Source: Roseibium sp. MMSF_3412 (GTDB taxonomy: Bacteria > Pseudomonadota > Alphaproteobacteria > Rhizobiales > Stappiaceae). Taken from it: DNA of 64,000 nt. Under the pieces are notes generated by a model. That model was given only the letters and a program-made list of their open reading frames with translations, ran no database searches and had not been told where the DNA came from. This document shows, piece after piece, positions 292-19,246 of this stretch. Where the stretch lies: positions 1-64,000 of the forward strand of contig NZ_JASHJI010000013.1 of NCBI RefSeq assembly GCF_030733265.1. Direction: 5' to 3'. A program made the translations under genes and the position numbers. The stretch's first letter is position 1. The number at the start of each line of letters is the position of its first letter.

Positions 292-1032
292 TCAGTGTGT
301 AAGCACCTGCTCGAGAAACAGTTTGGTCCTGGGGTTGGTCGGATTATCGAAGAAGGATTCCGGATCCGCTTCCTCAACAATCTGGCCTGCATCCATGAAA
401 ATGACCCTGTCGGCAACGCGTCTTGCAAAACCCATTTCGTGCGTGACGCAGATCATCGTCATGCCTTCCTTTGCAAGCGTTTCCATCACGTCCAGAACCT
501 CGCCGATCATCTCCGGATCGAGCGCGGAGGTCGGCTCATCAAACAAAAGAATATCAGGCTTCATGCAAAGCGCGCGTGCGATTGCAACACGCTGCTGCTG
601 TCCGCCGGACAATTGACCGGGATATTTCAGCGCCTGATCGGCGATCCGGACCTTTTCCAGATATCCCATTGCGCGCTCTTCCGCTTCGCTCTGGCTTTCC
701 TTGCGCGCCAGCATCGGAGCAAGCGTGCAGTTTTCCAAAATGGTCATGTGCGGGAACAAGTTGAAGTGCTGAAACACCATACCGACGTCACGCCGGAGCG
801 TTTCGATATTCGGCGCGTCGGCGTAGATTTCGTCTCCATGGATCAGGATTTCACCCGACTGATGCTCCTCGAGCTGGTTTATGGTTCGGATCATGGTCGA
901 CTTACCTGATCCTGAAGGGCCGCAGACGACGATCTTTTCACCCTTGGTAACGGCAAAGTCGATATCCTTGAGCGCGTGGAAGCTTCCGTAATACTTGTTT
1001 ACCTTGCGGAGTTCGACAGCGGGCATGTCCAT
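292..1032 (-). CDS. Polar amino-acid ABC transporter ATP-binding protein (AapP/BztD/GlnQ type)
   Basis: This 246-aa ATPase should energise import of a polar amino acid or analogue from the cytoplasmic face of the membrane. Walker [10 protein letters not shown] (about residue 39), signature LSGGQQQR and Walker [15 protein letters not shown] are all present, and the length is normal for the family. It starts 1 base after the ridA-like gene with GGAGG 9 bases upstream. It is the last gene of a seven-gene catabolic operon and has no permease or binding protein beside it. The matching binding protein and permeases, which lack an ATPase, are at 15905-19246, so the two loci probably form one transporter (inference). 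Confidence 0.92.
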
Positions 1033-1033
1033 C

Positions 1034-1384
1034 TCAGGTGTCCTCCTTGACGGCAGCGGTCACGATGATTTCCACTTTCAATATGTCGCGGGCGAGGCGT
1101 GCTTCGCCGCAGGCGCGCGCCGGGGCATGTCCTTCCGGAACCCAGTGATCCCAGACGGCGTTCATTTCTGCAAAATCGGCCATGTCCGCCAACCAGACGA
1201 TTGCCTGCAGGATGTGCTCCCGGTCGGACCCCGCTTCGGTGAGAAGGGCGTCGACGCGTGCGAGGCAGTCTCGGGTCTGTTCGGCGACGCTGTCGCCTGC
1301 ACCAACCTGGCCGCAGAGATAAGCGACCCCGTTGTGCTTGACGATCTTGCTCATGCGCTGACCAGTGTGAATCCGTTCGATCAT
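1034..1384 (-). CDS. RidA/YjgF-family enamine/imine deaminase
   Basis: A 116-aa single-domain Rid protein. It has the family's C-terminal pattern with an arginine in a [11 protein letters not shown] context, followed by the beta strand [10 protein letters not shown]. RidA members hydrolyse reactive enamines and imines such as 2-aminoacrylate, made by PLP lyases and amino-acid oxidases, to keto acids and ammonia. Its start overlaps the prpE stop (ATGA). The operon also holds a DAO-type oxidase, and a PLP lyase sits in the neighbouring operon, so imine clearance fits the context. The exact Rid subgroup is not determined. Confidence 0.88.
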
Positions 1385-3288
1385 CCCTGCACCTTTCTGT
1401 AACCGTGGTCGACAAGCACGTCTGCAATTTCATCGAGGATCGCGGGGTCGTCGATTGCCGCCGGGATCTTGAATTCCCGGTTGTCGGCGAGTTTTTGCAT
1501 CGTCCCACGCAGAACCTTGCCGGATCGTGTCTTGGGAAGCCGCTTCACCTCCATGGCTGTCTTGAAGGCTGCGACGGCGCCGATTTTTTCCCGCACCAGG
1601 GCAACAAGTTCTTTTTCAAGCTCAACCTCGTCCCGGCCGGCACCATCGTTTTGAACGAAGAAACCGATCGGCATCTGTCCCTTCAGGGCGTCTGCGGCTC
1701 CGATGACCGCGCATTCGGCAATGTCCTTGTGCGCCGCGATCACCTCTTCCATGGCGCCTGTCGAGAGACGATGCCCCGCAACATTGATGATGTCGTCCGT
1801 GCGCGCCATAATGAAGACATACCCGTCCTCGTCAATGATGCCGGCGTCAGACGTCGTGTAATAGCCGGGGAAGTCTTTCAGATACGCGTTGAAAAAACGC
1901 TCCTCGGCGTTCCAGAGCGTGGGCGTTCCGGACGGCGGCAGGGGCAGTTTGCAGACAATGTTGCCCAGTGTTCCGGGCGGAACCGGATTGCCGGCGTCAT
2001 CCAGGACGTCGATCTTGTATCCCGGCATCGGGACCCCGGGGGATCCCGGTTTGACGGGCAGCACCCCAAGCCCCACGGGATTGCCGGACATCGGCCAACC
2101 GGTCTCGGTCTGCCACCAGTGGTCAATCACAGGGCGTTGCAGCTTCTGCTGCGCCCACTCGATGGTTGCCGGATCGGACCTTTCGCCTGCCAGAAACAGG
2201 GTCCGGAAGCGGCTCAGATCGTAGTTGTCGATCAGCTTGCCCGACGGATCTTCCTTGCGAATGGCGCGAAAGGCGGTCGGTGCGGTGAAGAGCGCAACAA
2301 CCTTGTGTTCCGCGATGACGCGCCAGAATGCGCCCGCATCCGGTGTTCCAACCGGCTTGCCCTCGTAAACAATCGTCGCACAGCCGTGGAGAAGAGGGGC
2401 ATAACAGATGTAGGAATGACCGACCACCCAGCCGACGTCGGACGCCGCCCAGAAGACGTCCCCCGGTTTCACGCCGTAATGATGTTCCATCGACCATTTC
2501 ATCGCGACCATGTGACCGCCAGTGTCGCGCACGACGCCCTTCGGCTGACCGGTCGTTCCGGATGTGTAGAGAATATAGGCCGGATCGGTGGCCTTGACGG
2601 GAACGCAGTCCGGAATGGCTCCACGCGCTGCGCCGACAGTCTCCGCGTAGTCCAGGTCGCGGCCGGAAATCATGTCCGCTGCCAGCGCGTCCCGCTGAAG
2701 AACGACGCACTTTTCAGGCTTGTCCTCCGACATCTCGATGGCTGCATCGAGAAGCGGCTTGTAGGCGACGACGCGATTGGGCTCGATGCCGCAGGATGCC
2801 GAAATGATGATCTTCGGTTTGGCGTCTTCAATCCGGGTCGCGAGCTCCGCCGCGGCGAAGCCTCCAAAAACGACGGAATGAATGGCCCCAAGGCGAGCAC
2901 ACGCAAGCATTGCGAATATGGCTTCAGGAACCATCGGCATATAGATGATGACGCGGTCACCCTTCTCGACACCACTGTCAAGAAGGACCTGGGCGAGCGC
3001 GCCGACCTCTGTTTGCAGTTCTGCGTAGGTGAAGCTTTGTCTGGACGCGGTGACCGGGCTGTCGTGCACGAGTGCGAGACGCTCTCCATGTCCGGCGGCG
3101 ACGTGGCGGTCTACCGCGTTCCAGCACGTGTTGCAGACCCCATCCGGAAACCAGCGCCCGTAGGCTCCGGCATCCGGGTCGAACGCGATGTCCGGAGCCT
3201 TGATCCAGTCGATATCCTTCGCAGCATTCATCCAGAACGCTTCAGGATCGTCCAGCCAGGCTCGATAGGTTTCCGTGTAGCCGCTCAT
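1381..3288 (-). CDS. prpE: Propionyl-CoA synthetase-like acyl-CoA ligase
   Basis: A 635-aa AMP-forming ligase of the acetyl/propionyl-CoA synthetase family. It activates a short carboxylic acid with ATP and CoA. Visible features are the AMP-binding loop [15 protein letters not shown], the core motif [11 protein letters not shown], and the C-terminal lysine region [10 protein letters not shown] that is the usual catalytic and acylation site. The N-terminal region with [11 protein letters not shown] is typical of PrpE and its relatives. The gene starts 4 bases after the SDR stop and overlaps ridA. No methylcitrate-cycle genes are nearby, so the true acid may be propionate, acrylate, 3-hydroxypropionate or another small product of this pathway. 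Confidence 0.88.
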
Positions 3289-3292
3289 AAGT

Positions 3293-4033
3293 TCATACCG
3301 TGTAGTTCAGACCAAGGCGGCCACCGTCGACATAAATCGTCTCGCCGGTGATGTAGCTGGCCTTTTCCGATGCAAGGAAAGCCACCGTGTTACCGATCTC
3401 GCGGGCGGTTCCGACCCGGCCCATCGGGGTCCGCGACATGACCTTTGCAAGGGCTTCCGGATTTGCGTTCACACCGGCCATCATTTCCGTATCGATGGAG
3501 CCGGGCCCGACAGCATTTACCCGAATGCCGTGAGGCGCCAGCGACAGGGCCGCGGCCTTGGTCAGCTGCATGACACCGCCCTTTGACGCGCAATAGGCAG
3601 GAATTGCGGGAATGGCGACCTGTGCGTTGATCGAGGACATGTTCACGATCGCACCCTTGATGCCGCGGTCGACCATCGTGTTTGCAGCCCGCTGGGTTGC
3701 GTGGAAGACGCCGATCAGATTGACGTCGAGCACCCTCTTGAAGTCTTCGAGCGAATATTTGAGAAAGTCTCCCGGCATCGCAATGCCCGCATTGTTGACG
3801 AGAGCTGCGACCGGCCCCGCCTCGGCTTCGATCCGGTCGAACGTGGCGTTAATCTGCTCGACATTGCCCATGTCGCAAACATAGCCCGTGCCGCCGAGAC
3901 GCGTGGCAGCCTGATGAACGCTTTCCTGAATGTCGGACAGGACAACTTTGAAACCGTCTTCGGCCAGTGCTTCGGCGCAGGCATATCCGATGCCCTGAGC
4001 AGCGCCCGTCACGAGTGCGACTTTCTCGCTCAT
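3293..4033 (-). CDS. SDR-family NAD(P)-dependent dehydrogenase
   Basis: A 246-aa classical short-chain dehydrogenase. It has the cofactor motif TGAAQGIG near residue 10, the NNAG strand motif, the catalytic serine in NMSSINAQ, and the YCASK pair of catalytic Tyr and Lys. The C-terminus ITGETIYVDGG is typical. It oxidises or reduces a hydroxy/keto group on an unknown intermediate. The start codon overlaps the hyuB stop (ATGA), indicating translational coupling within the operon. FabG-like and sugar-alcohol SDRs look alike at this level, so substrate cannot be assigned. Confidence 0.88.
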   Translation of the reverse strand: MSEKVALVTGAAQGIGYACAEALAEDGFKVVLSDIQESVHQAATRLGGTGYVCDMGNVEQINATFDRIEAEAGPVAALVNNAGIAMPGDFLKYSLEDFKRVLDVNLIGVFHATQRAANTMVDRGIKGAIVNMSSINAQVAIPAIPAYCASKGGVMQLTKAAALSLAPHGIRVNAVGPGSIDTEMMAGVNANPEALAKVMSRTPMGRVGTAREIGNTVAFLASEKASYITGETIYVDGGRLGLNYTV

Positions 4034-7766: not shown

Positions 7767-7771
7767 TCTGT

Positions 7772-9046: not shown

Positions 9047-9096
9047 CGCAACAGCCTCCTGTCTACCGTTGTTACACAAACGTGCCCATACTGGAT

Positions 9097-9156
9097 TAGT
9101 TGCAAAAATAATGGGTGTGTGTCAACATAAGAAATATTCGTTTTATATATCGAAAC
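9097..9156 (-). promoter_or_regulatory. Promoter and 17-bp operator of the hyu/prpE operon
   Basis: Read on the minus strand, 9156-9140 is GTTTCGATATATAAAAC, a quasi-palindrome with GTTT and AAAC ends. After exactly 14 bases comes TTGACA (9125-9120), a good -35 box. A weak -10-like CTAAT lies about 17-19 bases further on. The same arrangement recurs upstream of 12833, and a third copy of the 17-bp site precedes 15905. It also lies between the operon and the divergent rhodanese gene, so both could be controlled. The IclR protein encoded at 9636-10406 is the likely binder (inference). Confidence 0.65.
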
Positions 9157-9166
9157 AGAGAGCGAT

Positions 9167-9568
9167 ATGAAAAAACTCAGGAAGAACTCCGCAGGCATGG
9201 TCGCCGAAGCACGGGAACGTATTGAAGAAATCGAGATCCAGGACCTGATCCAGCTTCTGGATGATGACAATGTCGTGGTTGTCGACATTCGCGATGTGCG
9301 CGAGCGGCAAAGGTCCGGCTTCATACCCGGGAGCGTACATGCACCAAGGGGCATGGTTGAATTCTGGGTCGACCCGGAAAGCCCCTATTTCAAGGAGATA
9401 TTCGGCGAAGACAAAAAATTCATCTTCCACTGCGCGTCCGGTTGGCGCTCGGCGCTGACGGTTGCGACGCTTCAGGACATGGGCTTTGAGGCCGCGCATT
9501 TGAGAGAAGGTTTTTCCAAATGGGCGGAAAAGGGCGGTCCGGTGGACATGCCGGAACCCAAGTCATAA
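9167..9568 (+). CDS. Rhodanese-domain sulfurtransferase
   Basis: A 133-aa single-domain rhodanese. The strand VVVVDIRDVRER is followed by the active-site loop C89-A-S-G-W-R94, a complete rhodanese loop with the persulfide-forming cysteine present. There is no signal peptide, so it is cytoplasmic. It would carry sulfane sulfur between donors and acceptors. It is divergent from the hyu operon and shares its control region. With the C-S lyase, the BisC-like reductase and the persulfide-dioxygenase-like protein nearby, it points to sulfur metabolism in this locus. Confidence 0.88.
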   Translation: MKKLRKNSAGMVAEARERIEEIEIQDLIQLLDDDNVVVVDIRDVRERQRSGFIPGSVHAPRGMVEFWVDPESPYFKEIFGEDKKFIFHCASGWRSALTVATLQDMGFEAAHLREGFSKWAEKGGPVDMPEPKS

Positions 9569-9635: not shown

Positions 9636-10406
9636 TTACACTCTGGAGAGTTTGCGGGAAACCGCTTCGGCCGCATGCGCTGAAAGAGAACCGAAGCGTT
9701 CTTCCGCATTGTCGGGCAGGTTGACGTTCGGGACCGAGATGCCGATTGCCGCGACGGCTTCACCATCCGGCAATTTGATCGCAGCTCCAAAGCTCAAAAT
9801 GCGGTCGCGGAATTCGCCCGTGTCAAATGCATAGCCGCGCATTTGCGTGGCTTCGATGTCCGCATCGAGCTGGCTCAGCGAGGTCAAGGTGCGGTTCGTG
9901 AACGACTGCAGAGGTTCAGACAACTTTTCCCGCAAGCTGTTATAATTCGCGGCCAGGATTGCCTTGCCGGTCCCGACACAGTGGATCGGGGCCGATCCTC
10001 CGATCGGGTTCCAGGACCGGATCGGCTTCTTGCTTTCGATCTTGTCGATGTAAACGACATTGAATTGTTCGGGGACCGCCAGATAGATCGTCTCGCCCGT
10101 CTCGTCGGCGAGATAGGCCATTTCGGGAGCCGCGAGTTCTCTCAGGTTGAGACTGTCGACCGTTGAGCGTCCGACTTGCCACATCTTGAGTGTAACCGCG
10201 TAGCTGCCGTCTTCCCGCTGTGCGACATAGCCGAGTCTGGAGAGCGTCTGTAGCAGGCGGAACGTATTCGACTTGGTCAGGTCCAGTGCGCGGGAGATCT
10301 CTGTGACACCAAGTGACCGGCGCGCTTCGGCGAGCTTTTCGAGGATTGCCAGGCCTTTGGAGAGTGTGGAGTCTACTTTTGCTTCGGTCGGTTTTTTTTC
10401 GGACAT
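9636..10406 (-). CDS. IclR-family transcriptional regulator
   Basis: A 256-aa IclR regulator. The winged helix-turn-helix spans about residues 14-75 (with LGVTEISRALDL and KSNTFRLLQTL), followed by the IclR effector domain with GKAILAA and the C-terminal ISVPN motif that normally lines the ligand pocket. It starts 2 bases after the stop of the molybdenum reductase gene, so the two are co-transcribed from the promoter near 12740. IclR proteins bind short quasi-palindromes. The 17-bp sites at 9140, 12741 and 15874 are the obvious candidates and would include autoregulation. Confidence 0.9.
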   Translation of the reverse strand: MSEKKPTEAKVDSTLSKGLAILEKLAEARRSLGVTEISRALDLTKSNTFRLLQTLSRLGYVAQREDGSYAVTLKMWQVGRSTVDSLNLRELAAPEMAYLADETGETIYLAVPEQFNVVYIDKIESKKPIRSWNPIGGSAPIHCVGTGKAILAANYNSLREKLSEPLQSFTNRTLTSLSQLDADIEATQMRGYAFDTGEFRDRILSFGAAIKLPDGEAVAAIGISVPNVNLPDNAEERFGSLSAHAAEAVSRKLSRV

Positions 10407-10408
10407 AG

Positions 10409-12736
10409 TCAGTCTTTGCTGGCGGTTTTCGGCAATGTAGCGGACGTATCCGCAAAGGTAAATCGAGGCGGTACATGTGCCTGGACCGGAGGAACGGACC
10501 CTTGCGGTAGCCGGATTTCGATGTTTGTCGAATGCGCAGCCGTGCTTTGTGTGAGTGACGACGTCCTGTTGTCATGAGTCAGAACGTTCGGGTTCCCATG
10601 TCGGTCGCGCTGATCCGGGCGTGAGAAATCCGGGTCATACCAGGCCCCGGTCCATAGAAACACGCATCCTTCGCGAATATCTTCCGTCACCCTGGCGCCG
10701 GCAAGACAGCGGCCGCGGGCGTTGTAAAGCTCGACGACGTCGCCGTCGCAGATGTGCCGTTTCGCTGCATCTCTCGGGTGTATCAGGACAGGCTCGCGCT
10801 CCTGGATCTTCGATGCGAGGCTTGTTGCGCCGTTGTCGAGCTGGCTGTGGAGGCGGGTTCCCGGCTGGCCCGAAACAAGCGCGAGCGGATAGGTTTGGTC
10901 ATTCGCGGCCGCCCTGTCTCTCGGCTCGAACCAGCTCGCATGCCCCGGGCAATCCAGCAGGTTCATATCGGCTATCGCCTGGGAATACAGTTCGATACGT
11001 CCGCTGGGTGTCGGCAACGCGAATTTTTCCGGTTCCGCGCGGTAGTCTGCAAGGAAGACCTGGTTCGGCGACGGGTCGGGCAAGGTAATCACGTCACCTG
11101 AAATGAATGTGTCCCAGTCCGGCAACTCGATCCCGTGTTCGCTGGCGGCCGTTCTCGTTTCTTCCCAGAGCCTGGTGAGCCAGCCGTGCTCATCGAGGCC
11201 TTCTGAGAAATCGTCCACCTTCCCGAGGCGCCTTGAGAGGTCGCAGTAGATGTCGAACTCGGTTCGCGCGTCACCGGGAGGAGCAACAGAGGCAGGCATC
11301 GGGATCAACGCGTTGTCGGATTTTCCGGCACCAAAATCGGTTCGTTCCTGCGGTGCTGCGACGGGCAGGACGATGTCAGCGTGACGAGCCGTCGCGGTCC
11401 AGTTGATCTCATTGACAACAATCGTGTCCGGTGTTGCAAACGCGCGCCTCAGCCGGTTCAGGTCCTGATGGTGGTGAAACGGATTGCCACCCGCCCACCA
11501 GACCATTTTCGTATTCGGTAGTGTCAGATTTTGACCCAGATACGTATAGTCTTGCCCGGGGTGCAGCAGCATTTCGGAAATCATGCTCACCGGAATGAAG
11601 TCCGGTATCTGGCGTTGTCCCTGTGGCAGCGCTCCGGGGCGGAACAATCGCTCGATATTGCCGATATTGCCATTGACGCCGTAACCGATCGTGAAGCCGC
11701 CTCCCGGAAGTCCGACCTGGCCGAGCATGGCCGCAAGCGAAACGGTCATCCAGAGGGGCTGCTCCCCGTAGTCGGCGCGCTGCAGGCTGGCAGCGCATGA
11801 GATCATTGTGCGCTTCGCGGCCATTTCCCGAGCAAGCAGTCTCAGCCTCGCAGCTGGAATGCCGGAACGGTCTGCGGCCCATTCCGGTGTTTTGGCTATG
11901 CCGTCCGTTTCTCCGCGAAGACAGGCAGCCAGTTGGCCGAAGCCGACGGTGTAGCGGTCTAGGAAGGTCTGGTCGTGCAGATTTTCTTCCAAAAGCGTAT
12001 GGGCAATGCCCATCATGACGGCGACGTCGGTGCCTGGTAACGGCGCAATCCATTCAGCGTCTACGCACTCCAGAACATCGCTTCGTAGCGGGCTGAAATT
12101 GACGAAACGGACACCCTCGCGGGCACATCTGGCAAGGTTATCGCCGAGCCGGTGTTGCGTGATGCCGCCGTCGCTGACCTGGGCGTTGCGCATGGCGAGG
12201 CCGCCAAACAGAACAACAAGCTCGCTATGATCCGCAATGACTGACCAGCGTGTGGCCTGCGCAACGTGCTTCCGGAACGGGCCCACTATGAACGGCATCA
12301 GGCCCAAAGCCGCGTTGTAGCTGTAGTTTCCTTCCGAGCGAACGAACCCGCCCTGGGTGTTGAGGAACCGCTTGAGCTGGCTCTGGGCATGATGAAATCG
12401 GCCTGCACTCGACCAACCATAGGAACCGGCAAAAATCGCACTGTTGCCGTGCGTCTCCCTCACCCTCTTCAGCTCATCGGCAAGGAGGTCGATCACCGTG
12501 TCCCAACTGACTTCGACAAAGGGCTCGTCTCCGCGTGTTGAAGGACCGGGACCATTTTCGAGCCAGCCTTTGCGTACAGCTGGCCGTAGAACGCGGGCCT
12601 GGCCATTCAGGCTTGAGGCAATATTGCCGTTGATAGGGGAGGGGTCGGGGTCTGCGGGATACGGGTCGACTGAGACAATCCGGCCGTTTTCGACTTGCAC
12701 GCAGCCGATACCCCAGTGATTTGAAGTGAGTGGCAT
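10409..12736 (-). CDS. BisC-like cytoplasmic molybdopterin sulfoxide reductase
   Basis: A 775-aa DMSO-reductase-family enzyme. It resembles biotin/methionine sulfoxide reductase BisC throughout: the segment FAGSYGWSSAGR carries the serine that ligates molybdenum in this family, and FVSGQPGTRLHSQL and NPNVLTHD lie towards the C-terminus. There is no twin-arginine signal, so it acts in the cytoplasm, as BisC does. It should reduce a small-molecule sulfoxide or N-oxide. The start is only 4 bases from the 17-bp operator and no Shine-Dalgarno sequence is visible. It is co-transcribed with the IclR regulator and divergent from a MetC-like lyase. Confidence 0.88.
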   Translation of the reverse strand: MPLTSNHWGIGCVQVENGRIVSVDPYPADPDPSPINGNIASSLNGQARVLRPAVRKGWLENGPGPSTRGDEPFVEVSWDTVIDLLADELKRVRETHGNSAIFAGSYGWSSAGRFHHAQSQLKRFLNTQGGFVRSEGNYSYNAALGLMPFIVGPFRKHVAQATRWSVIADHSELVVLFGGLAMRNAQVSDGGITQHRLGDNLARCAREGVRFVNFSPLRSDVLECVDAEWIAPLPGTDVAVMMGIAHTLLEENLHDQTFLDRYTVGFGQLAACLRGETDGIAKTPEWAADRSGIPAARLRLLAREMAAKRTMISCAASLQRADYGEQPLWMTVSLAAMLGQVGLPGGGFTIGYGVNGNIGNIERLFRPGALPQGQRQIPDFIPVSMISEMLLHPGQDYTYLGQNLTLPNTKMVWWAGGNPFHHHQDLNRLRRAFATPDTIVVNEINWTATARHADIVLPVAAPQERTDFGAGKSDNALIPMPASVAPPGDARTEFDIYCDLSRRLGKVDDFSEGLDEHGWLTRLWEETRTAASEHGIELPDWDTFISGDVITLPDPSPNQVFLADYRAEPEKFALPTPSGRIELYSQAIADMNLLDCPGHASWFEPRDRAAANDQTYPLALVSGQPGTRLHSQLDNGATSLASKIQEREPVLIHPRDAAKRHICDGDVVELYNARGRCLAGARVTEDIREGCVFLWTGAWYDPDFSRPDQRDRHGNPNVLTHDNRTSSLTQSTAAHSTNIEIRLPQGSVPPVQAHVPPRFTFADTSATLPKTASKD

Positions 12737-12740
12737 TTTG

Positions 12741-12777
12741 TTTCGCTAATCAGAACAAATTTTCTATATATTGACAC
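12741..12777 (+). promoter_or_regulatory. Operator and -35 element between the BisC-like and MetC-like genes
   Basis: Positions 12741-12757 read GTTTCGCTAATCAGAAC; on the other strand this begins GTTCTGAT, like the site at 15874. After exactly 14 bases comes TTGACA (12772-12777), pointing at the lyase gene. Counting by eye, 31 of 42 positions match the hyu-operon control region when both are aligned from the operator through TTGACACACA. The -10 for the lyase is not clear. The operator also abuts the start codon of the divergent reductase gene (12736), so one site could control both operons. Confidence 0.62.
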
Positions 12778-12832
12778 ACATAAGGACCGGTGTCATCAAT
12801 TCAACACTACTCGAATTCGGGAGCCCACCAGA

Positions 12833-13990
12833 ATGAAAACGACGACACTGGCCGATGCCCTGGTACACGGCGGCAGGCCTGATGGTCCCGACGGAAGACA
12901 GGTGAACTGGCCTGTGGAGCTGGGATCCACCGTCGTCTTCGACACGCTCGAAGCCTTCGAAGCGGCAAGAGAAGCGCGTTACGAAAACGGAACGCCTTAC
13001 TACGGCCGCTATGGAAATGCGGCGACGTTTTCGCTTGAGGATCTGCTGGCCGCGCTCGATGGTGCGGACGGAGTAACGCTGACGTCTTCAGGCGTGTCGG
13101 CCATTACTTCAACGCTGCTGGCCCTGGCGACACCTGGCGCGCATCTGCTCGTTGCCGAAAATCTTTACGGCAACACCAGAAGTTTCTGCGACGGCATTCT
13201 CGCAGCAATGAATGTTGCGATCGAACCTTTCGATCCGATGAGCGGCATCGACGGCAGGATACGCGAAAACACATGTGCGGTGATGGCGGAAGCGCCCGGA
13301 TCCGGCACGTTTGAGGTCTGCGATCTGCCGCAAATCGCGCGCGCGGCAAAAGAAAGGGGCGTACCCGTCGTTTTCGACAACACATGGGCCTCGCCGGTCT
13401 TTTGCAAACCCCTGGCGCTCGGTGCGGACGTGGTCGTCTACTCCGGATCAAAGCATCTTTGCGGTCACTCCGACGCGATGATGGGCGTCATCGCTGCAAG
13501 CGGGCCATTTCACGCACGCATCCGAAAGACCGTCATGCTGCTCGGTGACAAGCCCGGCGCTCAGGAAGTCCTTTTGACGCTGCGGGGCGTACGCACACTG
13601 AAAATGCGGATGGAACATCAGGATCGTGCCGGCAAGGAAATGGCGCTCTGGCTTTCGCAGCAGTCGTGCGTTGACAGGGTGCTTCATCCGGCGCTTGAGA
13701 GTTGTCCGGGCCACCAAAACTGGAAACGCGATTTTTCCGGGGCCGCAGGGCTCTTTTCCGTGATTTTCAAACCGACGACCGAACGGAATTTCCGATCCTT
13801 CGTCAATGCGTTGCAGTGTTTCGGGATCGGGGTGAGCTGGGGCGGCTACGAAAGCCTGGTCCTGCCCATGACGTCAGACCGTAGCCGACAACTCGGCGAG
13901 GGACCCTTGCTGCGCTTCAGCATCGGGTTCGACGATCCGGAAACGCTCAGGACCGATCTGCGCCAAGCCTTCAATCTCCTTCAGGACTAA
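12833..13990 (+). CDS. MetC-like Cys/Met-metabolism PLP enzyme (C-S lyase)
   Basis: A 385-aa fold-type I PLP enzyme of the cystathionine lyase family. It has the YGRYGN segment, the aspartate motif FDNTWASP (D182) and the PLP lysine in YSGSKHLCGHSD (K207). The sequence is closest to cystathionine beta-lyase/MetC-type proteins, which split C-S bonds to a thiol, ammonia and a keto acid through an aminoacrylate intermediate. Pairing with a sulfoxide reductase and a RidA protein fits degradation of an S-substituted cysteine or homocysteine. Beta- versus gamma-lysis cannot be decided here. The start has GGGAG about 9 bases upstream. Confidence 0.85.
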   Translation: MKTTTLADALVHGGRPDGPDGRQVNWPVELGSTVVFDTLEAFEAAREARYENGTPYYGRYGNAATFSLEDLLAALDGADGVTLTSSGVSAITSTLLALATPGAHLLVAENLYGNTRSFCDGILAAMNVAIEPFDPMSGIDGRIRENTCAVMAEAPGSGTFEVCDLPQIARAAKERGVPVVFDNTWASPVFCKPLALGADVVVYSGSKHLCGHSDAMMGVIAASGPFHARIRKTVMLLGDKPGAQEVLLTLRGVRTLKMRMEHQDRAGKEMALWLSQQSCVDRVLHPALESCPGHQNWKRDFSGAAGLFSVIFKPTTERNFRSFVNALQCFGIGVSWGGYESLVLPMTSDRSRQLGEGPLLRFSIGFDDPETLRTDLRQAFNLLQD

Positions 13991-13997
13991 GTCTGTC

Positions 13998-14633
13998 ATG
14001 CAAAACAAGATCGACCATTTCGCCATCGGGTGTTCAGACCTCGAAACAGGTGTTGCCTATCTCCAGGATAAGCTGGGGGTCCATGTTCCTAAAGGCGGCA
14101 AACATGCAGCAATGAGCACGCATAACTGCGTCATGCAGGCAGGAAACGAGAGCTTTTTCGAACTCATCGCGATCGATCCGGACGCGCCGGATCCTGGCCG
14201 GGCGCGATGGTTTACTCTCGATGATGCGGCGACCCAAAAGAGATTGAGCGAGCGGCCGCGTGCGTTGACATGGGTCGTGAATACAACGGACCTTGACCGA
14301 ATCATCGCTGACAGCCCTGTCGATCTGGGAGAGGTAGTGGACTTCGCTCGCGGCGACAGGACCTGGAGGCTCACCGTCCCGCGCGACGGAAGCCTTCCTG
14401 AAAACGGTCTCTTGCCTGCTTTTATTGAATGGTCACCGGGTCCCCATCCATCGACCGGCCAACAGGATCTTGAGGTGAGACTGCAATCCGTGAAGCTCAC
14501 GCATCCCGACCCTTCGCGGATCGAGGCAATGCTCACTACGCTGAACGTGAGGCATCTGGCAGAAGTCTCGCAGGGTGAGGCAGGACTGGCCTTTGCTCTG
14601 AATTCTCCGTCAGGATCCGTCCTTCTGGACTGA
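13998..14633 (+). CDS. VOC (glyoxalase-like) family protein
   Basis: A 211-aa protein with two vicinal-oxygen-chelate modules. The N-terminal IDHFAIGCSDLETGVAYL is typical of a glyoxalase-like domain, and a second module ends in FALNSPSGSVLLD. VOC proteins are metal-dependent isomerases, lyases or dioxygenases, or substrate binders. It starts 7 bases after the MetC-like gene and is surely co-transcribed. Its role is unknown. It may act on the lyase product or a side product. No specific metal ligands were assigned. Confidence 0.75.
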   Translation: MQNKIDHFAIGCSDLETGVAYLQDKLGVHVPKGGKHAAMSTHNCVMQAGNESFFELIAIDPDAPDPGRARWFTLDDAATQKRLSERPRALTWVVNTTDLDRIIADSPVDLGEVVDFARGDRTWRLTVPRDGSLPENGLLPAFIEWSPGPHPSTGQQDLEVRLQSVKLTHPDPSRIEAMLTTLNVRHLAEVSQGEAGLAFALNSPSGSVLLD

Positions 14634-14699
14634 TCGAGAACGCCTTTTGGAGAAGGATATAACGGAGCGGAATAGGCTTCTTTTTCGCGAGCCGGCGTC

Positions 14700-15596
14700 T
14701 CAAAGCGCGTTCACAGGCACTTTCAGGAAGGTCTTTCCGCTGTCATCGGCAGGCGGCAGCTTGCCGGCACGCATGTTGACCTGGATGGACGGAATGATGA
14801 GCTTGGGCATGGAGAGCTGGGCATCGCGTTCGGTGCGGAACTTCACGAACTCTTCCCGGGTCTTGCCGCCGCCGACATGGATGTTGTGTTCCTTTTCGTC
14901 GCCGACTGTGGTCTCCCACTGGATGTCCCGCCCGTTCGGGCCGTAGTCGTGGCACATGAACAGGCGCATGTCCTCCGGCAGGGCGAGCACCTTCTGGATC
15001 GAATCGTAAAGCATCGCCGCGTCGCCGCCGGGGAAATCCGCACGCGCCGACCCGCCGTCGGGCATGAACAGCGTGTCGCCGGCAAAGGCGGCGTTGCCCA
15101 TCACGTGCACCATGCAGGCCGGCGTGTGGCCGGGTGTGGCCATGGCAAAGGCGGTCATCTCTCCGATCCGGTAGGTGTCGCCATCCTGAAACAGCCGGTC
15201 GAACTGGCTGCCGTCGCGCTGGAATTCCGTGCCCTCGTTGAAAACCTTGCCGAAGGTTTCCTGGATGACGGTGATCTGGTCGCCGATACCCAGTTTGCCG
15301 CCGAGTTTCTGCTGGATGTAGGGCGCTCCGGAGAGATGGTCGGCATGGACATGTGTTTCGATCAGCCATTCGAGCTCAAGCCCGTTTTCCTCGATATAGG
15401 CGATGATCTCGTTTGCGTTGTCATAGGTGATGCGGCCGGCTGCGATATCGATATCCATGACGCTGTCGACGACGGCGCAGGCCTTTGAGGACGGATCCCT
15501 GACCACGTAGCTGATCGTGTTTGTCGCCGGATCGAAGAACGCCTTCACCTCCGGTACGACCGCCATGTCGACAGGATAATTGGAACGGATAATCAT
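14700..15596 (-). CDS. Metallo-beta-lactamase-fold persulfide-dioxygenase-like protein
   Basis: A 298-aa MBL-fold protein with the metal motif THVHADHLSG, a later histidine in MATPGHTPAC and the aspartate of AFAGDTLFM. It resembles ETHE1/Blh-type persulfide dioxygenases, which oxidise glutathione persulfide to sulfite, but true hydrolases look similar. The frame is open 22 codons further upstream. The start at 15596 is chosen because AGGAG precedes it by 7 bases. It is monocistronic and convergent with the lyase/VOC pair. None of the 17-bp operators lies upstream, so it may be controlled separately. Confidence 0.82.
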   Translation of the reverse strand: MIIRSNYPVDMAVVPEVKAFFDPATNTISYVVRDPSSKACAVVDSVMDIDIAAGRITYDNANEIIAYIEENGLELEWLIETHVHADHLSGAPYIQQKLGGKLGIGDQITVIQETFGKVFNEGTEFQRDGSQFDRLFQDGDTYRIGEMTAFAMATPGHTPACMVHVMGNAAFAGDTLFMPDGGSARADFPGGDAAMLYDSIQKVLALPEDMRLFMCHDYGPNGRDIQWETTVGDEKEHNIHVGGGKTREEFVKFRTERDAQLSMPKLIIPSIQVNMRAGKLPPADDSGKTFLKVPVNAL

Positions 15597-15626
15597 CTTT
15601 ACTCCTGCTGAAGGCCCTTGGCACTG

Positions 15627-15639
15627 GAAACCGGGTTTC
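15627..15639. promoter_or_regulatory. Palindrome GAAACC-G-GGTTTC upstream of the MBL gene
   Basis: A 13-base interrupted palindrome lies about 30 bases upstream of the chosen MBL start codon. It sits where a repressor could block that promoter. Its sequence differs from the 17-bp site shared by the other promoters. No function is known. Confidence 0.3.
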
Positions 15640-15865
15640 AGGTGACTCCCAGGGCGTTGCAATCAAACTCCAGGCTTTGGCCCATCGCTCAACGTGCGAC
15701 TGATTGCATTGCTCGGATCTCGAGCGGACCCGGCATGCCCAAGGAATATGCGCCAGCGCGATAACCTGCCCAATGACCGGTCACACAGGTGAAAATTTGG
15801 CTTGTTTGAACCGGGGCACCAGAATTCACTTGACTCATTTTCGAGTGACCGTAACCTATTAAATG

Positions 15866-15890
15866 GAACACGTGTTCTGATATATAAAAC
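15866..15890 (+). promoter_or_regulatory. Overlapping palindrome and third 17-bp operator before the transporter genes
   Basis: A perfect 12-base palindrome GAACACGTGTTC (15866-15877) overlaps GTTCTGATATATAAAAC (15874-15890). The second sequence shares the 12-base core GATATATAAAAC with the hyu-operon site. The operator ends 14 bases before the binding-protein start codon. A possible -35 TTGACT lies at 15830-15835. So here the site is downstream of the likely promoter, unlike the other two places, which suggests repression or a second promoter. Confidence 0.55.
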
Positions 15891-15904
15891 AGGGAACAGC
15901 TAAA

Positions 15905-16945
15905 ATGGCAACCAATTTTGCAAAAATCGCCTGCGCGGTTGCATTTGCCGCGGGTGTTGCGGCTCCCGTAACAGCCGCCGCGAAAAGTTCGACGGTCACG
16001 GCTATCGAGGAACGGGGAACTCTTTTGTGCAGCGGCCACAACGGCAGCTATTTCGGATTTGTTGAGGTCAACGACAAAAACGAATGGAAAGGCCTGGACA
16101 TCGACATGTGCCGAGCTCTGACCACCGCGATCCTTGGCGATCCGGACAAGGCGCAGATCGTGCCGCTCAGCTGGGCGCAACGCTTTCCGGCGCTTCAGTC
16201 GGGTGATGTCGATGTGATCATCAAGGCAACCGGTTGGACGATGGGGCGCGATACCGAGGTCGGGTTGCAGTTCAGCCTCCCCTACTTCTTTGGCGGGACC
16301 CAGTTCATGGCCCATGGCGATCTGGGGATCACCGAAGCCAAGGAACTCGACGGCGGCACCATCTGTGTTGAAGCCGGAACCACAATCGAGCGCCTTGCAG
16401 GCAATTATCTCAAGACGATTGGTATCGAACACACCATGGTGTCCTATGAGAAGGCGTCTGAACTGCGCGCCGCCTACCTCGCGAACCGCTGCGATGCCTT
16501 CGCGGCGTGGGGACCGTTCCTGGCTGTCCTGCGTGCGACAGAACTTGAAAAGCCCGATGCCCATATCATCCTGTCGGACCAGCTCTCCAACGAACCGATT
16601 GCCGCAGCCATGCGCCAGGGGGACGAAGAGTTCGTCGATATGGTGAACTGGATGATTGCAGCTCTCCTGATCGCAGAAGAAGAAGGTGTGACGTCTGCGA
16701 ACGTGGAAGAAATGGCGTCCAATCCGCCCAATCCGAAAATCGCCCGCCTTCTTGGTGTTGACCCCGGCATGGGCGAGCGGCTCGGCATCCGCGACACATG
16801 GGCAAAGGAGATGATCGCGGCTGTTGGCAACTTCGGCGAGATTTATGATCGCAATCTCGGTGAAGGATCTCCTTACAAGCTCGAGCGCGGGTTGAACAAT
16901 CTGTGGAGCCACGGCGGCGTTCTCTACGCACCGATCCTCGACTAA
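15905..16945 (+). CDS. Amino-acid ABC transporter substrate-binding protein (AapJ/BztA type)
   Basis: A 346-aa periplasmic binding protein. Residues 1-26 form a signal peptide ending near VTAAA. The mature protein begins a type II periplasmic binding fold (VTAIEERGTLLCSGHNG, and later DVDVIIKATGWTMGRD), matching general L-amino-acid binders AapJ/BztA in length and pattern. It is the first of three transporter genes on this strand. Its promoter carries the shared operator, so uptake is likely induced together with the catabolic genes. The ligand is not known, but the context favours an amino-acid-like sulfur compound. Confidence 0.9.
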   Translation: MATNFAKIACAVAFAAGVAAPVTAAAKSSTVTAIEERGTLLCSGHNGSYFGFVEVNDKNEWKGLDIDMCRALTTAILGDPDKAQIVPLSWAQRFPALQSGDVDVIIKATGWTMGRDTEVGLQFSLPYFFGGTQFMAHGDLGITEAKELDGGTICVEAGTTIERLAGNYLKTIGIEHTMVSYEKASELRAAYLANRCDAFAAWGPFLAVLRATELEKPDAHIILSDQLSNEPIAAAMRQGDEEFVDMVNWMIAALLIAEEEGVTSANVEEMASNPPNPKIARLLGVDPGMGERLGIRDTWAKEMIAAVGNFGEIYDRNLGEGSPYKLERGLNNLWSHGGVLYAPILD

Positions 16946-16958
16946 GACAAGTTCGCAG

Positions 16959-16990
16959 GGCGGCGGCAGTGTGACCTGCTGCCGCCTTTT
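16959..16990 (+). terminator. Attenuating stem-loop between binding-protein and permease genes
   Basis: GGCGGCGGCAG (16959-16969) pairs with CTGCTGCCGCC (16976-16986), giving an 11-bp stem with one G-T pair and a six-base loop, followed by TTTT. It starts 13 bases after the binding-protein stop. Such partial terminators are common after binding-protein genes, where they keep permease levels below binding-protein levels and can protect the upstream mRNA. Confidence 0.75.
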
Positions 16991-17019
16991 GATTGTGTTG
17001 CGGCAAGGAGGATCCGGAA

Positions 17020-18156
17020 ATGGATGCTGCGGCTCTCAAGCTAAGGCGCAGTCGTCGGGACATGCTGGTCCAGACGCTTCTCGTCGTCTTTGTGGTTCTC
17101 GTAATCTGGGTTGCGATATCGACAGCCCACACGAATCTGACCGAACTCAACATGACGAGCGGCTTCGGATTTCTCGAGCGTGCGACCGGTTGGTCCTATT
17201 CTTTCTCGCTGATCGACCGGAGCATTGACGACAGCTACGCCAAAACCCTGCTGATCGGCTTCCTGAACACGTTGTTTTTGGGGCTGATCTGTATTGTTTT
17301 GTCGACCATACTCGGTTTCGCCATCGGAACCGCCAGAGATGCGCGGCAGCTTGGCTTAAACTCCCTTGCCACGGTCTACATCCAGCTTTTCCGTAACCTC
17401 CCGCTCATTCTTCAGCTTGTTTTCTGGTATGCGGTCCTGATCCACATGCCGGGGCCGCGTCAGGCCTATACGATGGGCGAAGTTGCGTTTCTGTCGAACC
17501 GGGGTCTGATGTTGCCCGGATTCAACGTTTCTCCGACTGTCGTGTTGGCAATGATTGCGGCTGTTGCGCTGCTGGCGGTGGTGATTTTCCGCCAGAAGAG
17601 CTTGCAACCGGTGCAGAAGCTGCTCCTCTGGCTGGTGTCGGGCATTGGCGCGATGCTCCTGCTTGCCTGGATTTTCGCACCTGCGGACAGCTCAATCTTT
17701 TCGATACCTGCCCAGCAGGGTCTGCGGTTTCGAGGCGGGATCGGCGTGCCGATAGAACTTGTCGCGATGATCCTTGCGATCACGCTCTATGGTTCTGCCT
17801 ATATTGCCGAAGTCGTTCGGGGCGGCCTCAACGAGGTTCCAAGCGGTCTCACCGAGGCCGGCAAGGCTCTTGGTCTTTCCTCGCGCGCCATCTGGTTCTA
17901 CATCAAGATGCCGATGGCGCTGCGCACCATCATGCCTCCGCTCGGCAACCAGTGGATCTTCATCATGAAGGCAACAACACTTGGTGTCGCGATCGGGTTC
18001 AGCGACTTGTTCTACATCGTATCGACGTCGATTACCCAATCCGGCCAGACGCTGGAACTCATGGGTCTGTTGATGCTGTCGTTCCTGCTGATCAACTACT
18101 CGTTGGCCCAGTTCGTCAATTTCATGAACGCGCGCCTCGCGCTGAAAGGGCACTGA
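17020..18156 (+). CDS. Amino-acid ABC transporter permease (AapQ/BztB type)
   Basis: A 378-aa inner-membrane permease. Several hydrophobic segments are visible (for example residues 15-35 and 70-95). The cytoplasmic EAA loop ends in LTEAGKALGLSSRAIWFYIK, which docks the ATPase. The long form, with an extra central hydrophobic block, is typical of AapQ/BztB rather than GlnP. The start is at 17020 because AAGGAGG lies just upstream; the frame extends nine codons further. It should pair with the next permease and with the ATPase at 292-1032. Confidence 0.9.
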   Translation: MDAAALKLRRSRRDMLVQTLLVVFVVLVIWVAISTAHTNLTELNMTSGFGFLERATGWSYSFSLIDRSIDDSYAKTLLIGFLNTLFLGLICIVLSTILGFAIGTARDARQLGLNSLATVYIQLFRNLPLILQLVFWYAVLIHMPGPRQAYTMGEVAFLSNRGLMLPGFNVSPTVVLAMIAAVALLAVVIFRQKSLQPVQKLLLWLVSGIGAMLLLAWIFAPADSSIFSIPAQQGLRFRGGIGVPIELVAMILAITLYGSAYIAEVVRGGLNEVPSGLTEAGKALGLSSRAIWFYIKMPMALRTIMPPLGNQWIFIMKATTLGVAIGFSDLFYIVSTSITQSGQTLELMGLLMLSFLLINYSLAQFVNFMNARLALKGH

Positions 18157-18157
18157 C

Positions 18158-19246
18158 ATGGCTTTGGCGAGTGAACTCCCGGCTCAATCGGATAGGTGGG
18201 CAACCTTTGCAAACACGCTCAGGAAGCGGGCGTTCAGGAGCCCGAGCGACAGTTTCACGAGCGTCTTCATCTTCGGGTTGATGCTCTATATGGCCTGGAC
18301 GATGATCGACTGGGCAATCCTCAGTGCCGTCTGGCGGGCTGAAGACGTCGAGAATTGTGCCAACACCGGCGGCGCGTGCTGGTCTGTCATTGCCGCGCGC
18401 CATCGTCTGATCCTGTTCGGACTCTATCCTTTTGAAGAGCATTGGCGCTCGACACTGGCTTGCCTCGCCATCGTTGCGACGGTGGTCCTGTCATGTCTGC
18501 CGCGCTTCTGGAGCACCAGCCGCCTGATAACCCTCTGGATCGTCGGGTTTGGCGCCTATGTAGTGCTCATGGATGGTCGCCTGATCGGACAGCCTGTCGT
18601 AACGACCGACCAGTGGGGCGGATTGGCGTTGACGCTGTTCATGTTTTCCGCCGTGGTTTTGCTCGGAATGCCTTTGGGGCTGCTTCTGGCCCTGGCACGG
18701 AGGTCCAAACTGCCTGTGGTCCGAGGCGCGGCGTCATTGTTGATCGACTTCATCCGATCGCTCCCGCTGCTGACAACGCTGTTTGCGGCTGCTGTGGTTA
18801 TTCCGCTTCTGCTGCCCGACTGGTTGAACGGCGACAAGATCTGGCGCGTGATCGTGGGCTTTGCGCTCTTCTTCGCCTGTTATCAGGCAGAGGTGTTTCG
18901 CGGTGGATTTCAGGCAATACCCAAAGGCCAGTTCGAGGCGGGAAAGGCGTTGGGCCTGACGCCGTTCCAGACGCTGTCGCGCATCGTCATGCCGCAGGTA
19001 TTCCGTCATGCATTGCCGTCAACGATCAACATGGTCGTCGTGACCTTCAAGGAAACGGCGATCGTGATCATCATCGGCTTCTTTGACGTTCTCGCCTCGG
19101 CAAACGCTGCATTCGGCACGGTTGAATGGGCACCCTATTACATCGAGGTATACGCATTTGTCGGCGCGATCTACTGGATCTTCATCTTCTCGCTGAGCCA
19201 GTACGGTGAGTACCTGAAGGCACGCATGGCTGTCGCCAAGCGGTAG
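18158..19246 (+). CDS. Amino-acid ABC transporter permease (AapM/BztC type)
   Basis: A 362-aa permease that follows the first by one base. Its EAA loop is FEAGKALGLTPFQTLSRIVMP, and the C-terminus has the usual segment FKETAIVIIIGFFDVL. The N-terminal region holds an extra membrane segment and a periplasmic loop with two cysteines (ENCANTGGACW), as in AapM/BztC. The transporter operon ends here without an ATPase gene; the next gene is a chemoreceptor on the other strand. Confidence 0.9.
   Translation: MALASELPAQSDRWATFANTLRKRAFRSPSDSFTSVFIFGLMLYMAWTMIDWAILSAVWRAEDVENCANTGGACWSVIAARHRLILFGLYPFEEHWRSTLACLAIVATVVLSCLPRFWSTSRLITLWIVGFGAYVVLMDGRLIGQPVVTTDQWGGLALTLFMFSAVVLLGMPLGLLLALARRSKLPVVRGAASLLIDFIRSLPLLTTLFAAAVVIPLLLPDWLNGDKIWRVIVGFALFFACYQAEVFRGGFQAIPKGQFEAGKALGLTPFQTLSRIVMPQVFRHALPSTINMVVVTFKETAIVIIIGFFDVLASANAAFGTVEWAPYYIEVYAFVGAIYWIFIFSLSQYGEYLKARMAVAKR

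What the first reader, a model, noticed from the sequence alone, without database searches (positions are those of the whole stretch)
292..19246. Candidate undescribed pathway for a sulfur-containing amino-acid-like compound
The locus joins a BisC-like sulfoxide reductase, a MetC-like C-S lyase, a RidA imine deaminase, a rhodanese, a persulfide-dioxygenase-like enzyme, a DAO oxidase, ATP-dependent HyuAB, an SDR, an acyl-CoA ligase and an amino-acid importer. I know of no described pathway with this set. One model: import, ring opening or amine oxidation, sulfoxide reduction, C-S lysis to a thiol and keto acid, CoA activation of the remaining acid. Cyclic or S-oxidised cysteine/methionine derivatives would be natural candidates in the sea.
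Basis: inference. Interest (0 to 1): 0.75.

Follow-up and report, generated by a model that had tools for sequence, protein, structure and literature searches.

The report
Co-regulated sulfur amino-acid breakdown cluster
A conserved set of co-regulated bacterial genes, found mostly in sea bacteria, looks built to import and break down an unidentified oxidised, probably ring-shaped sulfur amino acid.

Summary
Of 50 close HyuA loci, 25 carry the BisC-type gene; 22 of those 25 also carry MetC (3 of 25 without BisC). One palindromic operator stands before the importer, the BisC/MetC pair and the rhodanese/DAO-HyuAB operon; in the 6.2-Mb genome the only matches with at most two mismatches are these three promoters. 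It is found in 28 of 28 tested promoters with the cluster IclR gene and 1 of 4 without. So this is one regulon, probably one pathway. The binding protein has an aromatic residue where relatives have the Asp that holds a free alpha-amine, so the ligand is probably cyclic or N-substituted. Inferred route: S-oxide reduction, amine oxidation, lactam formation, ATP-driven lactam opening, C-S lysis; chondrine is the first compound to test, unproven. SDR-HyuAB without DAO in some loci counts against a fixed order. My paper searches found no description of the set.

The parts
292..1032 (-). ABC ATPase (AapP/GlnQ-like) of the split importer
   Evidence: ABC_tran; GlnQ model 309 bits (cut-off 379); the importer genes have no ATPase next to them here, but in Vibrio the orthologue follows SBP-PermQ-PermM directly
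1034..1384 (-). RidA-family imine/enamine deaminase
   Evidence: Ribonuc_L-PSP 85 bits; PAR motif
1381..3288 (-). PrpE-like acyl-CoA ligase (ACS)
   Evidence: propionate--CoA ligase 735 bits (cut-off 955); second copy elsewhere in own genome at 69%
3293..4033 (-). SDR dehydrogenase
   Evidence: adh_short_C2; passes one broad subfamily model (PRK07231, 217 of 215 bits); present in 40 of 50 loci L001-L050
4030..5685 (-). HyuB, metal-site subunit of ATP-dependent lactamase/hydantoinase
   Evidence: Hydantoinase_B 499 bits; CapB-type metal ligands D40, H100, D103, H125 matched by motif and position, not by structure (sites from PMC8453981)
5682..7766 (-). HyuA, ATP-binding subunit
   Evidence: ATP motifs at D11 (DIGGTFTD), D288 (DMGGT) and PGP (sites from PMC8453981)
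7772..9034 (-). DAO-type FAD amine oxidase, nearest NCBIfam model L-pipecolate oxidase AmaA
   Evidence: 458 bits (cut-off 600); AF2 model pLDDT 88.3, best Foldseek hits glycine, sarcosine, proline and N-methyltryptophan oxidases
9118..9157 (.). two operator sites, 20 bp apart, between rhodanese and DAO
   Evidence: 26.6 and 12.7 bits with a matrix trained without this window
9167..9568 (+). single-domain rhodanese (CASGWR loop)
   Evidence: 66.9 bits; CxSGxR motif in 32 of 33 called orthologues
9636..10406 (-). IclR-family regulator
   Evidence: nearest model BhcR 164 bits (cut-off 350); operator follows its presence
10409..12736 (-). BisC-like molybdenum S/N-oxide reductase, no signal peptide seen by eye
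   Evidence: TIGR00509 884 bits (cut-off 1017.55); SYGWxS motif; aligned with DMSO reductase
12738..12778 (.). tandem operator sites between BisC and MetC
   Evidence: 20.5 and 19.5 bits (and 15.4 for the second read on the other strand)
12833..13990 (+). MetC-like PLP C-S beta-lyase
   Evidence: TIGR01324 347 bits (cut-off 365.9); Y57, R59, K207, W336 invariant in the window and 21 relatives aligned
13998..14633 (+). Glx3, VOC-superfamily protein (PF13468)
   Evidence: AF2 model pLDDT 92.8, best Foldseek hits 3p8a, methylmalonyl-CoA epimerase, HPPD
14700..15662 (-). MBL-fold persulfide-dioxygenase-like protein (Blh C-terminal domain)
   Evidence: 379 bits (cut-off 625), matching model residues 137-423 only; in 12 of 25 BisC-carrying loci
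15873..15892 (+). operator upstream of SBP
   Evidence: 29.9 bits, best in the 64-kb window
15905..16945 (+). SBP, family-3 solute-binding protein with W202 where AapJ-type paralogues have Asp
16993..18156 (+). permease Q
   Evidence: HEQRo_perm_3TM 53.4 bits (cut-off 42.2)
18158..19246 (+). permease M
   Evidence: HEQRo_perm_3TM 51.9 bits (cut-off 42.2)

Best explanation
One IclR-controlled regulon for the uptake and breakdown of an S-oxidised sulfur amino acid whose nitrogen is part of a ring (or otherwise substituted). Shown by computation: a single operator at three promoters, co-conservation, intact catalytic motifs, altered amine site in the binding protein. Inferred: import through SBP-PermQM-ATPase; the BisC-like enzyme (cytosolic, as no signal peptide is seen) reduces the sulfoxide to the thioether; the DAO (pipecolate/sarcosine-oxidase type) oxidises the ring amine to an imine; its hydrate is oxidised by the SDR to a lactam; HyuAB opens the lactam with ATP, giving an S-substituted cysteine; MetC splits it by beta-elimination into pyruvate, ammonia and a thiol acid, RidA clearing 2-aminoacrylate; rhodanese and, where present, the Blh-like protein deal with released sulfur; the PrpE-derived ligase activates the small acid. 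First candidate: chondrine (thiomorpholine-3-carboxylic acid S-oxide), via 5-oxothiomorpholine-3-carboxylate and S-carboxymethylcysteine to thioglycolate (a size match for propionate). Class and route about 0.4; chondrine itself about 0.15.
For: Operator: a matrix trained on 29 Rhod/DAO promoters of other genomes (window and three nearest relatives left out) gives its six best hits in 64 kb at the three cluster promoters, 29.9 to 12.7 bits, next hit 10.2. Own genome, 6.2 Mb: matches with 2 or fewer mismatches only at these three; 4 more with 3 mismatches, control pattern 3. Leave-one-out, 28 of 28 regions with the cluster IclR beat 100 of 100 shuffles; of 4 without it, 3 have no site. Co-conservation and short linkage. 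Upstream of SBP no ORF is shared with two or more of the others in 9 genomes, so the cluster seems to end there. SBP: aromatic at residue 202 in 13 of 13 SBPs fetched whole from cluster genomes (12 Trp, 1 Phe), Asp in 16 of 17 paralogues, Arg115 kept; SBP 78% identical in Vibrio against BisC 56%, MetC 48%. DAO: nearest model and fold are secondary-amine oxidases among others. HyuAB keeps the ATP and metal motifs of the lactamases; caprolactamase is its best NCBIfam model. MetC orthologue in Vibrio passes the cystathionine beta-lyase cut-off, 429 over 365.9. PrpE-type ACS in 22 of 25 BisC-carrying loci, 2 of 25 others.
Against: SDR and HyuAB occur together without DAO in the stretches held of L026, L041 and L078, so DAO-SDR-HyuAB is not a fixed chain. 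MetC is missing in 3 of 25 BisC-carrying loci (L033, L034, L038), and Glx3 has no place in the route. L026 has a peptide-type importer with an amidase under the same operator. Short clusters (Rhod, DAO, HyuAB, SDR) live in genomes without cluster-type BisC or MetC. Two decayed-looking SBP copies do not show the aromatic: L004 (a fragment ending there, Arg) and L013 (a stop there). No equivalog model shown reaches its cut-off in this window, so no reaction is certain. The role of the replaced Asp is recalled from other family-3 binding proteins, not seen in a structure of this one. No paper on chondrine breakdown turned up.
Confidence: 0.4

Rival explanations
1. Five-membered thia-ring substrate (thioproline, 2-oxothiazolidine-4-carboxylate or an S-oxide): DAO and SDR lead to 2-oxothiazolidine-4-carboxylate, HyuAB opens it to cysteine plus CO2, and MetC works as a cysteine/cystine desulfhydrase feeding sulfide to rhodanese and Blh.
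For: Fits the short clusters that have no cluster-type MetC or BisC and the rhodanese next to HyuAB without DAO. A sarcosine oxidase solved with L-thioproline is among the fold relatives of the DAO (rank 45). Opening of 2-oxothiazolidine-4-carboxylate by 5-oxoprolinase is recalled, not looked up.
Against: Gives no role to the acyl-CoA ligase; S-oxides of this ring are not known to me as natural products; a beta-lyase of MetC type is not needed for cysteine.
Confidence: 0.2
2. Acyclic S-oxide amino acid (S-methylcysteine sulfoxide, methionine sulfoxide or their N-methyl or betaine forms), with HyuAB acting on a hydantoin or other side product.
For: BisC-type reductases take methionine and biotin sulfoxides (recalled); methionine N-methyl sulfoxide is listed for marine organisms (PMC7545470, passages); DAO fold relatives include N-methyl amino acid oxidases.
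Against: HyuAB and SDR are the most constant parts (HyuB in 50 and SDR in 40 of 50 loci; HyuA was the bait) and would have no main role; loss of the alpha-ammonium Asp speaks against free alpha-amino acids, though not against N-methylated ones.
Confidence: 0.15
3. A lactam or hydantoin enters as such and HyuAB acts early; DAO acts later on the freed amine together with RidA, and the SDR on a product.
For: L026 has the operator, HyuAB, SDR, MetC and Glx3 but neither DAO nor BisC in the stretch held; a lactam NH would also not need the Asp in the SBP.
Against: DAO stands directly ahead of HyuA and is present in 25 of 25 BisC-carrying loci.
Confidence: 0.15
4. Sulfur-free substrate: BisC works as an N-oxide reductase and the sulfur genes are neighbours for other reasons.
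For: BisC-family enzymes also reduce N-oxides (recalled); all sulfur assignments rest on family membership.
Against: MetC, BisC and rhodanese share promoters and operator with the rest, and MetC follows BisC across loci, 22 of 25 against 3 of 25.
Confidence: 0.1

Closest known systems
ATP-dependent caprolactamase CapAB / lactam-responsive OplAB of Pseudomonas (PMC8453981: outline, sections 2.1 part 1, 2.7, 2.10 read)
   Same: Two-subunit HyuAB enzyme with the same ATP motifs and metal ligands; best NCBIfam model for HyuA (441 bits) and HyuB (203 bits)
   Different: Far below the model cut-offs (1000); a sulfur gene set around it
L-pipecolate catabolism (AmaA oxidase)
   Same: Nearest curated model of the DAO, 458 bits, also for the Vibrio orthologue (457)
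   Different: Below the cut-off of 600; no aldehyde dehydrogenase in the cluster; SDR and ATP-lactamase instead
BisC/TorZ/DMSO reductase family
   Same: SYGWxS motif of the Mo-ligand Ser, near full-length alignment with DMSO reductase
   Different: Own group: in 199 genomes 63% or more only beside HyuA (5 genomes), one partial match of 60% (G052), all other listed matches 51% or less; no signal peptide seen by eye
Cystathionine beta-lyase MetC
   Same: Catalytic residues and SWGGxES signature
   Different: Just below the equivalog cut-off in the window (347 against 365.9); at 50% or more found in 2 of 20 genomes whose loci lack BisC (L026, L043)
AapJQMP amino-acid importer
   Same: Fold family; permease domain passes its cut-off; nearest solved binding protein 4z9n
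   Different: Asp to Trp/Phe at the amine site and extra aromatics Y49 or F49 and W90; ATPase gene placed in the catabolic operon

Membership tests
HyuAB / ATP-dependent lactamase-hydantoinase superfamily | both subunits with ATP motifs (DxGGTFTD, DMGGT, PGP) and metal ligands in the small subunit | tested here: met
   Pfam far over cut-off; motifs in 77, 78 and 79 of 79 called HyuA proteins and GHxxD in 77 of 77 HyuB proteins
Caprolactamase CapAB | NCBIfam equivalog cut-off 1000 bits | tested here: not met
   441 and 203 bits
bisC_fam S/N-oxide reductase (TIGR00509) | model cut-off 1017.55 bits | tested here: not met
   884 bits: related, outside the curated subfamily
DMSO-reductase-type molybdenum enzymes | Ser ligand motif and Molybdopterin/Molydop_binding domains | tested here: met
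L-pipecolate oxidase AmaA | model cut-off 600 bits | tested here: not met
   458 bits
Cystathionine beta-lyase (TIGR01324) | model cut-off 365.9 bits | tested here: inconclusive
   window 347 (not met), Vibrio orthologue 429 (met)
Propionate--CoA ligase PrpE | model cut-off 955 bits (PRK10524) | tested here: not met
   735 bits; a second, separate copy in the genome at 69%
Blh bifunctional sulfur transferase/dioxygenase | full-length match over 625 bits | tested here: not met
   379 bits, C-terminal part only
Family-3 amino-acid binding proteins (AapJ type) | carboxylate-binding Arg and alpha-ammonium-binding Asp | tested here: not met
   Arg115 kept, Asp replaced by Trp; the roles of both residues are recalled
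IclR regulon | regulator binds the shared palindrome | not testable with these tools
   only correlation of operator and IclR gene

The most novel reading that the evidence does not exclude
An undescribed branch of marine organosulfur breakdown: a dedicated regulon, shared by alpha- and gammaproteobacteria, that imports a cyclic S-oxide amino acid of algal or animal origin and takes it apart by cytosolic sulfoxide reduction, amine-to-lactam oxidation, ATP-driven lactam opening and C-S lysis.
Probability: 0.4. Interest if true: 0.75.

Novelty: new variant of a known kind. Interest (0 to 1): 0.55.

Why it matters
Sulfur cycling by marine bacteria is mostly described for DMSP, taurine and sulfonates (recalled). 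A tightly kept regulon with its own importer in roseobacters, Roseibium, Hoeflea, Granulosicoccus and Vibrio points to a sulfur amino acid common enough in the sea to be worth a dedicated pathway. The binding protein and the operator make the unknown compound directly searchable: ligand screens and reporter strains can name it.

Tried and rejected
Ergothioneine breakdown: considered because of its thiohydantoin intermediate (recalled); no ergothionase- or urocanase-like gene among the cluster proteins scanned; the rest of the genome was not searched for one. Biotin sulfoxide breakdown: BisC and ring opening would fit, but the importer is of amino-acid type and the cluster has no side-chain beta-oxidation genes. 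Lanthionine/cystathionine ketimine rings: would not give a lactam for HyuAB (reasoning only). Neighbours as clue: ten neighbours from six loci without BisC (L007, L017, L022, L023, L031, L045) were scanned and differ from genome to genome (mechanosensitive channel, isocitrate dehydrogenase, YceI, 2-hydroxyacid dehydrogenase, IclR and others). Off-cluster operator look-alikes: in 12 other genomes 61 matches with up to 2 mismatches against 36 for the control pattern; of 21 with at most one, 19 lie at the clusters and 2 elsewhere, beside ORFs that look like other IclR regulators by eye (not scanned). Glx3 fold: VOC, but the nearest folds (epimerase, dioxygenase) do not fix a reaction. Rfam and tRNA scans of the window: nothing. 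Paper searches (listings seen) gave no description of this gene set.

The genome searches scored at most 5 candidates a genome. Operator shuffles were of single letters. The upstream-SBP test used the window and 5 of the 13 fetched cluster SBP loci, those stored with the gene on the plus strand. My ORF caller missed genes in AT-rich loci such as L039, so counts rest on tblastn. 'Mostly sea bacteria' rests on record titles and recall, not on a count.
Full report
What is there. Two parts were missed: an IclR-family regulator (9636-10406, minus) and a VOC-superfamily protein, here Glx3 (13998-14633, plus). The rhodanese is 9167-9568, plus. The window begins at base 1 of its contig in a 6.2-Mb genome; its HyuA is 96% identical to that of an uncultured Roseibium (L001).

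Is it one unit? Of the 50 closest, 25 carry the BisC-like gene; in those 25, SDR, DAO and IclR are in 25, Glx3 in 24, rhodanese in 23, MetC and the acyl-CoA ligase in 22 each, the ATPase in 21. In the other 25 the numbers are 15, 14, 6, 3, 13, 3, 2 and 0 in the same order (45% identity or more; some loci are cut by contig ends). Of the 30 more distant loci none has BisC, MetC, DAO or IclR at this identity; L078 has rhodanese, Glx3 and SDR. In 199 genomes of the order, BisC matches (E up to 1e-150) fall in two groups: five full-length at 63% or more (own included), one partial at 60% (G052), and all others listed at 51% or less. All five sit 2.6-3.0 kb from a HyuA of 69% or more; two further genomes have such a HyuA without that BisC (G201, G168). 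Twenty genomes whose loci lack BisC were searched whole: the best BisC match is 42-49% in 11 and absent at the threshold in 9; MetC at 50% or more is found in two (L026, L043), 39-45% at best elsewhere. The order Glx3-MetC-BisC-IclR-rhodanese-DAO-HyuA-HyuB-SDR-ACS-RidA-ATPase is kept, with single genes missing here and there, from Roseibium to roseobacters, Hoeflea, a Rhodospirillales MAG and Granulosicoccus (a gammaproteobacterium); the importer genes lie at the Glx3 end, but turned round in the three Roseibium/Labrenzia loci relative to the others. Vibrio (L039, L214) has a rearranged set: SBP-PermQ-PermM-ATPase divergent from BisC-SDR-MFS_4-IclR, and MetC-Glx3-DAO-HyuA-HyuB. Marinomonas (L044) has MetC, Glx3, DAO, HyuAB, SDR, IclR and an MFS_4 carrier in the stretch held. 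These two loci show no rhodanese, RidA, cluster-type ACS or Blh, so those look like additions; the rest of the two genomes was not searched for them. Upstream of SBP, in 9 genomes (8 alpha, 1 Granulosicoccus), no ORF is shared with two or more of the others.

One operator. The promoter stretches of other genomes show a palindrome close to TGTnCTGATATATAGAACA. A matrix trained on 29 rhodanese/DAO promoters, leaving out the window and L001, L002 and L021, was run over both strands of the 64-kb window. The six best places are upstream of SBP (15873-15892, 29.9 bits), between rhodanese and DAO (9138-9157, 26.6; 9118-9137, 12.7) and between BisC and MetC (12759-12778, 20.5; 12739-12758, 19.5; 12738-12757, 15.4, the same site on the other strand); the next is 10.2. 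For BisC/MetC promoters 20 of 22 beat 200 of 200 shuffles (L020 and L012: 3 and 4 shuffles reach them); upstream of SBP 6 of 6 (window and 5 of 13 fetched). In the own genome, matches with two mismatches or fewer to a matching pattern occur only at the three cluster promoters; with three mismatches 4 more, against 3 in all for the reversed control. In 12 other genomes, 21 matches have at most one mismatch: 19 at the clusters, 2 elsewhere; at two mismatches matches elsewhere are common (61 in all, control 36). Leave-one-out, 28 of 28 rhodanese/DAO regions with the cluster IclR gene beat 100 of 100 shuffles; of four regions without it, three have no site and one (L031, which has another IclR-family gene nearby) has. 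Sites are also found in Vibrio (20.6 bits, before SBP), Marinomonas (20.4, IclR/MetC) and Afipia (20.3 and 19.7) (highest in those stretches, no shuffles run). The set is thus one regulon, most likely of this IclR; binding itself is untested.

What the importer says. Of 13 SBPs fetched whole from genomes with the cluster, 12 have Trp and one (Afipia, L147) Phe at position 202, as the window has Trp; of 17 paralogues in the same set of genomes, 16 have Asp and one Leu. Two decayed-looking copies left out of that count differ: L004 (fragment, Arg) and L013 (a stop). In family-3 binding proteins this Asp holds the alpha-ammonium group of the ligand (recalled). The carboxylate Arg115 is kept, and the cluster SBPs have further aromatics (W90; Y49 or F49) not seen in the AapJ-type paralogues other than L150. 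So the ligand has a carboxylate but probably no free primary alpha-amine: a ring amine, N-methylated or betaine nitrogen, or a lactam. The SBP is the best-kept part between Vibrio and Roseibium (78%; HyuB 70%, HyuA 64%, BisC 56%, MetC 48%).

Enzymes. HyuA and HyuB keep the ATP motifs and metal ligands described for caprolactamase (PMC8453981, sections 2.1 part 1, 2.7 and 2.10 read; motifs) but score far below the caprolactamase models. The DAO is nearest to the L-pipecolate oxidase model, below cut-off (458 of 600; Vibrio 457), and its AF2 model (pLDDT 88.3) to glycine, sarcosine, proline and N-methyltryptophan oxidases, one of them solved with thioproline. BisC has the Ser ligand motif and no signal peptide by eye. 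MetC keeps the catalytic residues and is just under the cystathionine beta-lyase cut-off, its Vibrio orthologue over it. The ACS is a sister of PrpE: 70.5-96% to the window copy in other clusters (63% for a partial one, L004), 65.5-70.5% to the separate PrpE copy of the own genome. Glx3 is a VOC fold (AF2 pLDDT 92.8; nearest 3p8a, methylmalonyl-CoA epimerase, HPPD), reaction unknown.

Best reading. Import of an S-oxidised, ring- or N-substituted sulfur amino acid, then S-oxide reduction, amine oxidation to an imine, SDR oxidation of its hydrate to a lactam, ATP-driven opening by HyuAB, and C-S beta-elimination by MetC. Thiomorpholine-3-carboxylic acid S-oxide (chondrine, an algal compound; recalled) fits these steps: it is a thia-analogue of pipecolate, its lactam would open to S-carboxymethylcysteine, and MetC would release thioglycolate, which has the shape of propionate and could explain a PrpE-derived ligase. 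This is a chemical argument, not a result. Thiomorpholine-3-carboxylic acid (in human urine and mammalian brain) and, separately, methionine N-methyl sulfoxide in marine organisms are mentioned in PMC7545470 (passages seen).

Against it. SDR-HyuAB without DAO in the stretches held of L026, L041 and L078, BisC without MetC (3 of 25), the amidase and peptide-type importer under the same operator in L026, and the short clusters show that the core is HyuAB with SDR, and that DAO, BisC and MetC are modules. A five-membered thia-ring, an early-acting lactamase, or an N-methyl S-oxide amino acid remain open.

Novelty. Paper searches in the open-access library (listings) found no description of the set; most subscription papers are not held. 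All enzyme families are known; the combination, the regulon and the altered binding protein look new. I rate it a new variant of a known kind, interest 0.55.

Noticed in passing
L026 8785-9947 and 16280-18749: Hyphomicrobiales MAG with Glx3-MetC / IclR-HyuAB-SDR, no DAO, BisC or rhodanese in the stretch, and the same operator also between an amidase and a DppA-type importer: the importer of the regulon may have been swapped.
   Followed up: partly
L051-L080, e.g. L054 8273-21123: A sister HyuAB group in Pseudomonas, Burkholderia and Rhizobium relatives: an NAD-epimerase-like protein and another DAO in 24 of 30 loci, a GntR regulator in 23, an aminotransferase in 15, a thiamine-diphosphate enzyme in 13 (families named from L054): another unnamed pathway.
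   Followed up: partly
L029, L040, L041, L049 (about 9.1-9.9 kb): The rhodanese stands divergently next to HyuAB where no DAO is found beside it, so rhodanese and HyuAB are linked more basically than the rest.
   Followed up: no
L150: A further AapJ-type binding protein (48% identical) with Leu at the alpha-ammonium position, F49 and W90: a second altered specificity in a Pelagimonas genome.
   Followed up: no
L013 8873-9437 and L004 4096-4473: The SBP gene appears broken in the L013 MAG (pieces, a stop inside) and is only a fragment in L004.
   Followed up: no
window 19825-25352: Two methyl-accepting chemotaxis proteins directly beyond the importer.
   Followed up: no
window 54072-62241: Operon-like block with HAD hydrolase, LacI regulator, DUF993, two GMC oxidoreductases and a MalK-type ATPase; looks like sugar or polyol oxidation.
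   Followed up: no
L078: Xanthobacter tagetidis carries Glx3, rhodanese, HyuAB and SDR together without DAO, BisC or MetC in the stretch, next to antiporter-type genes.
   Followed up: no
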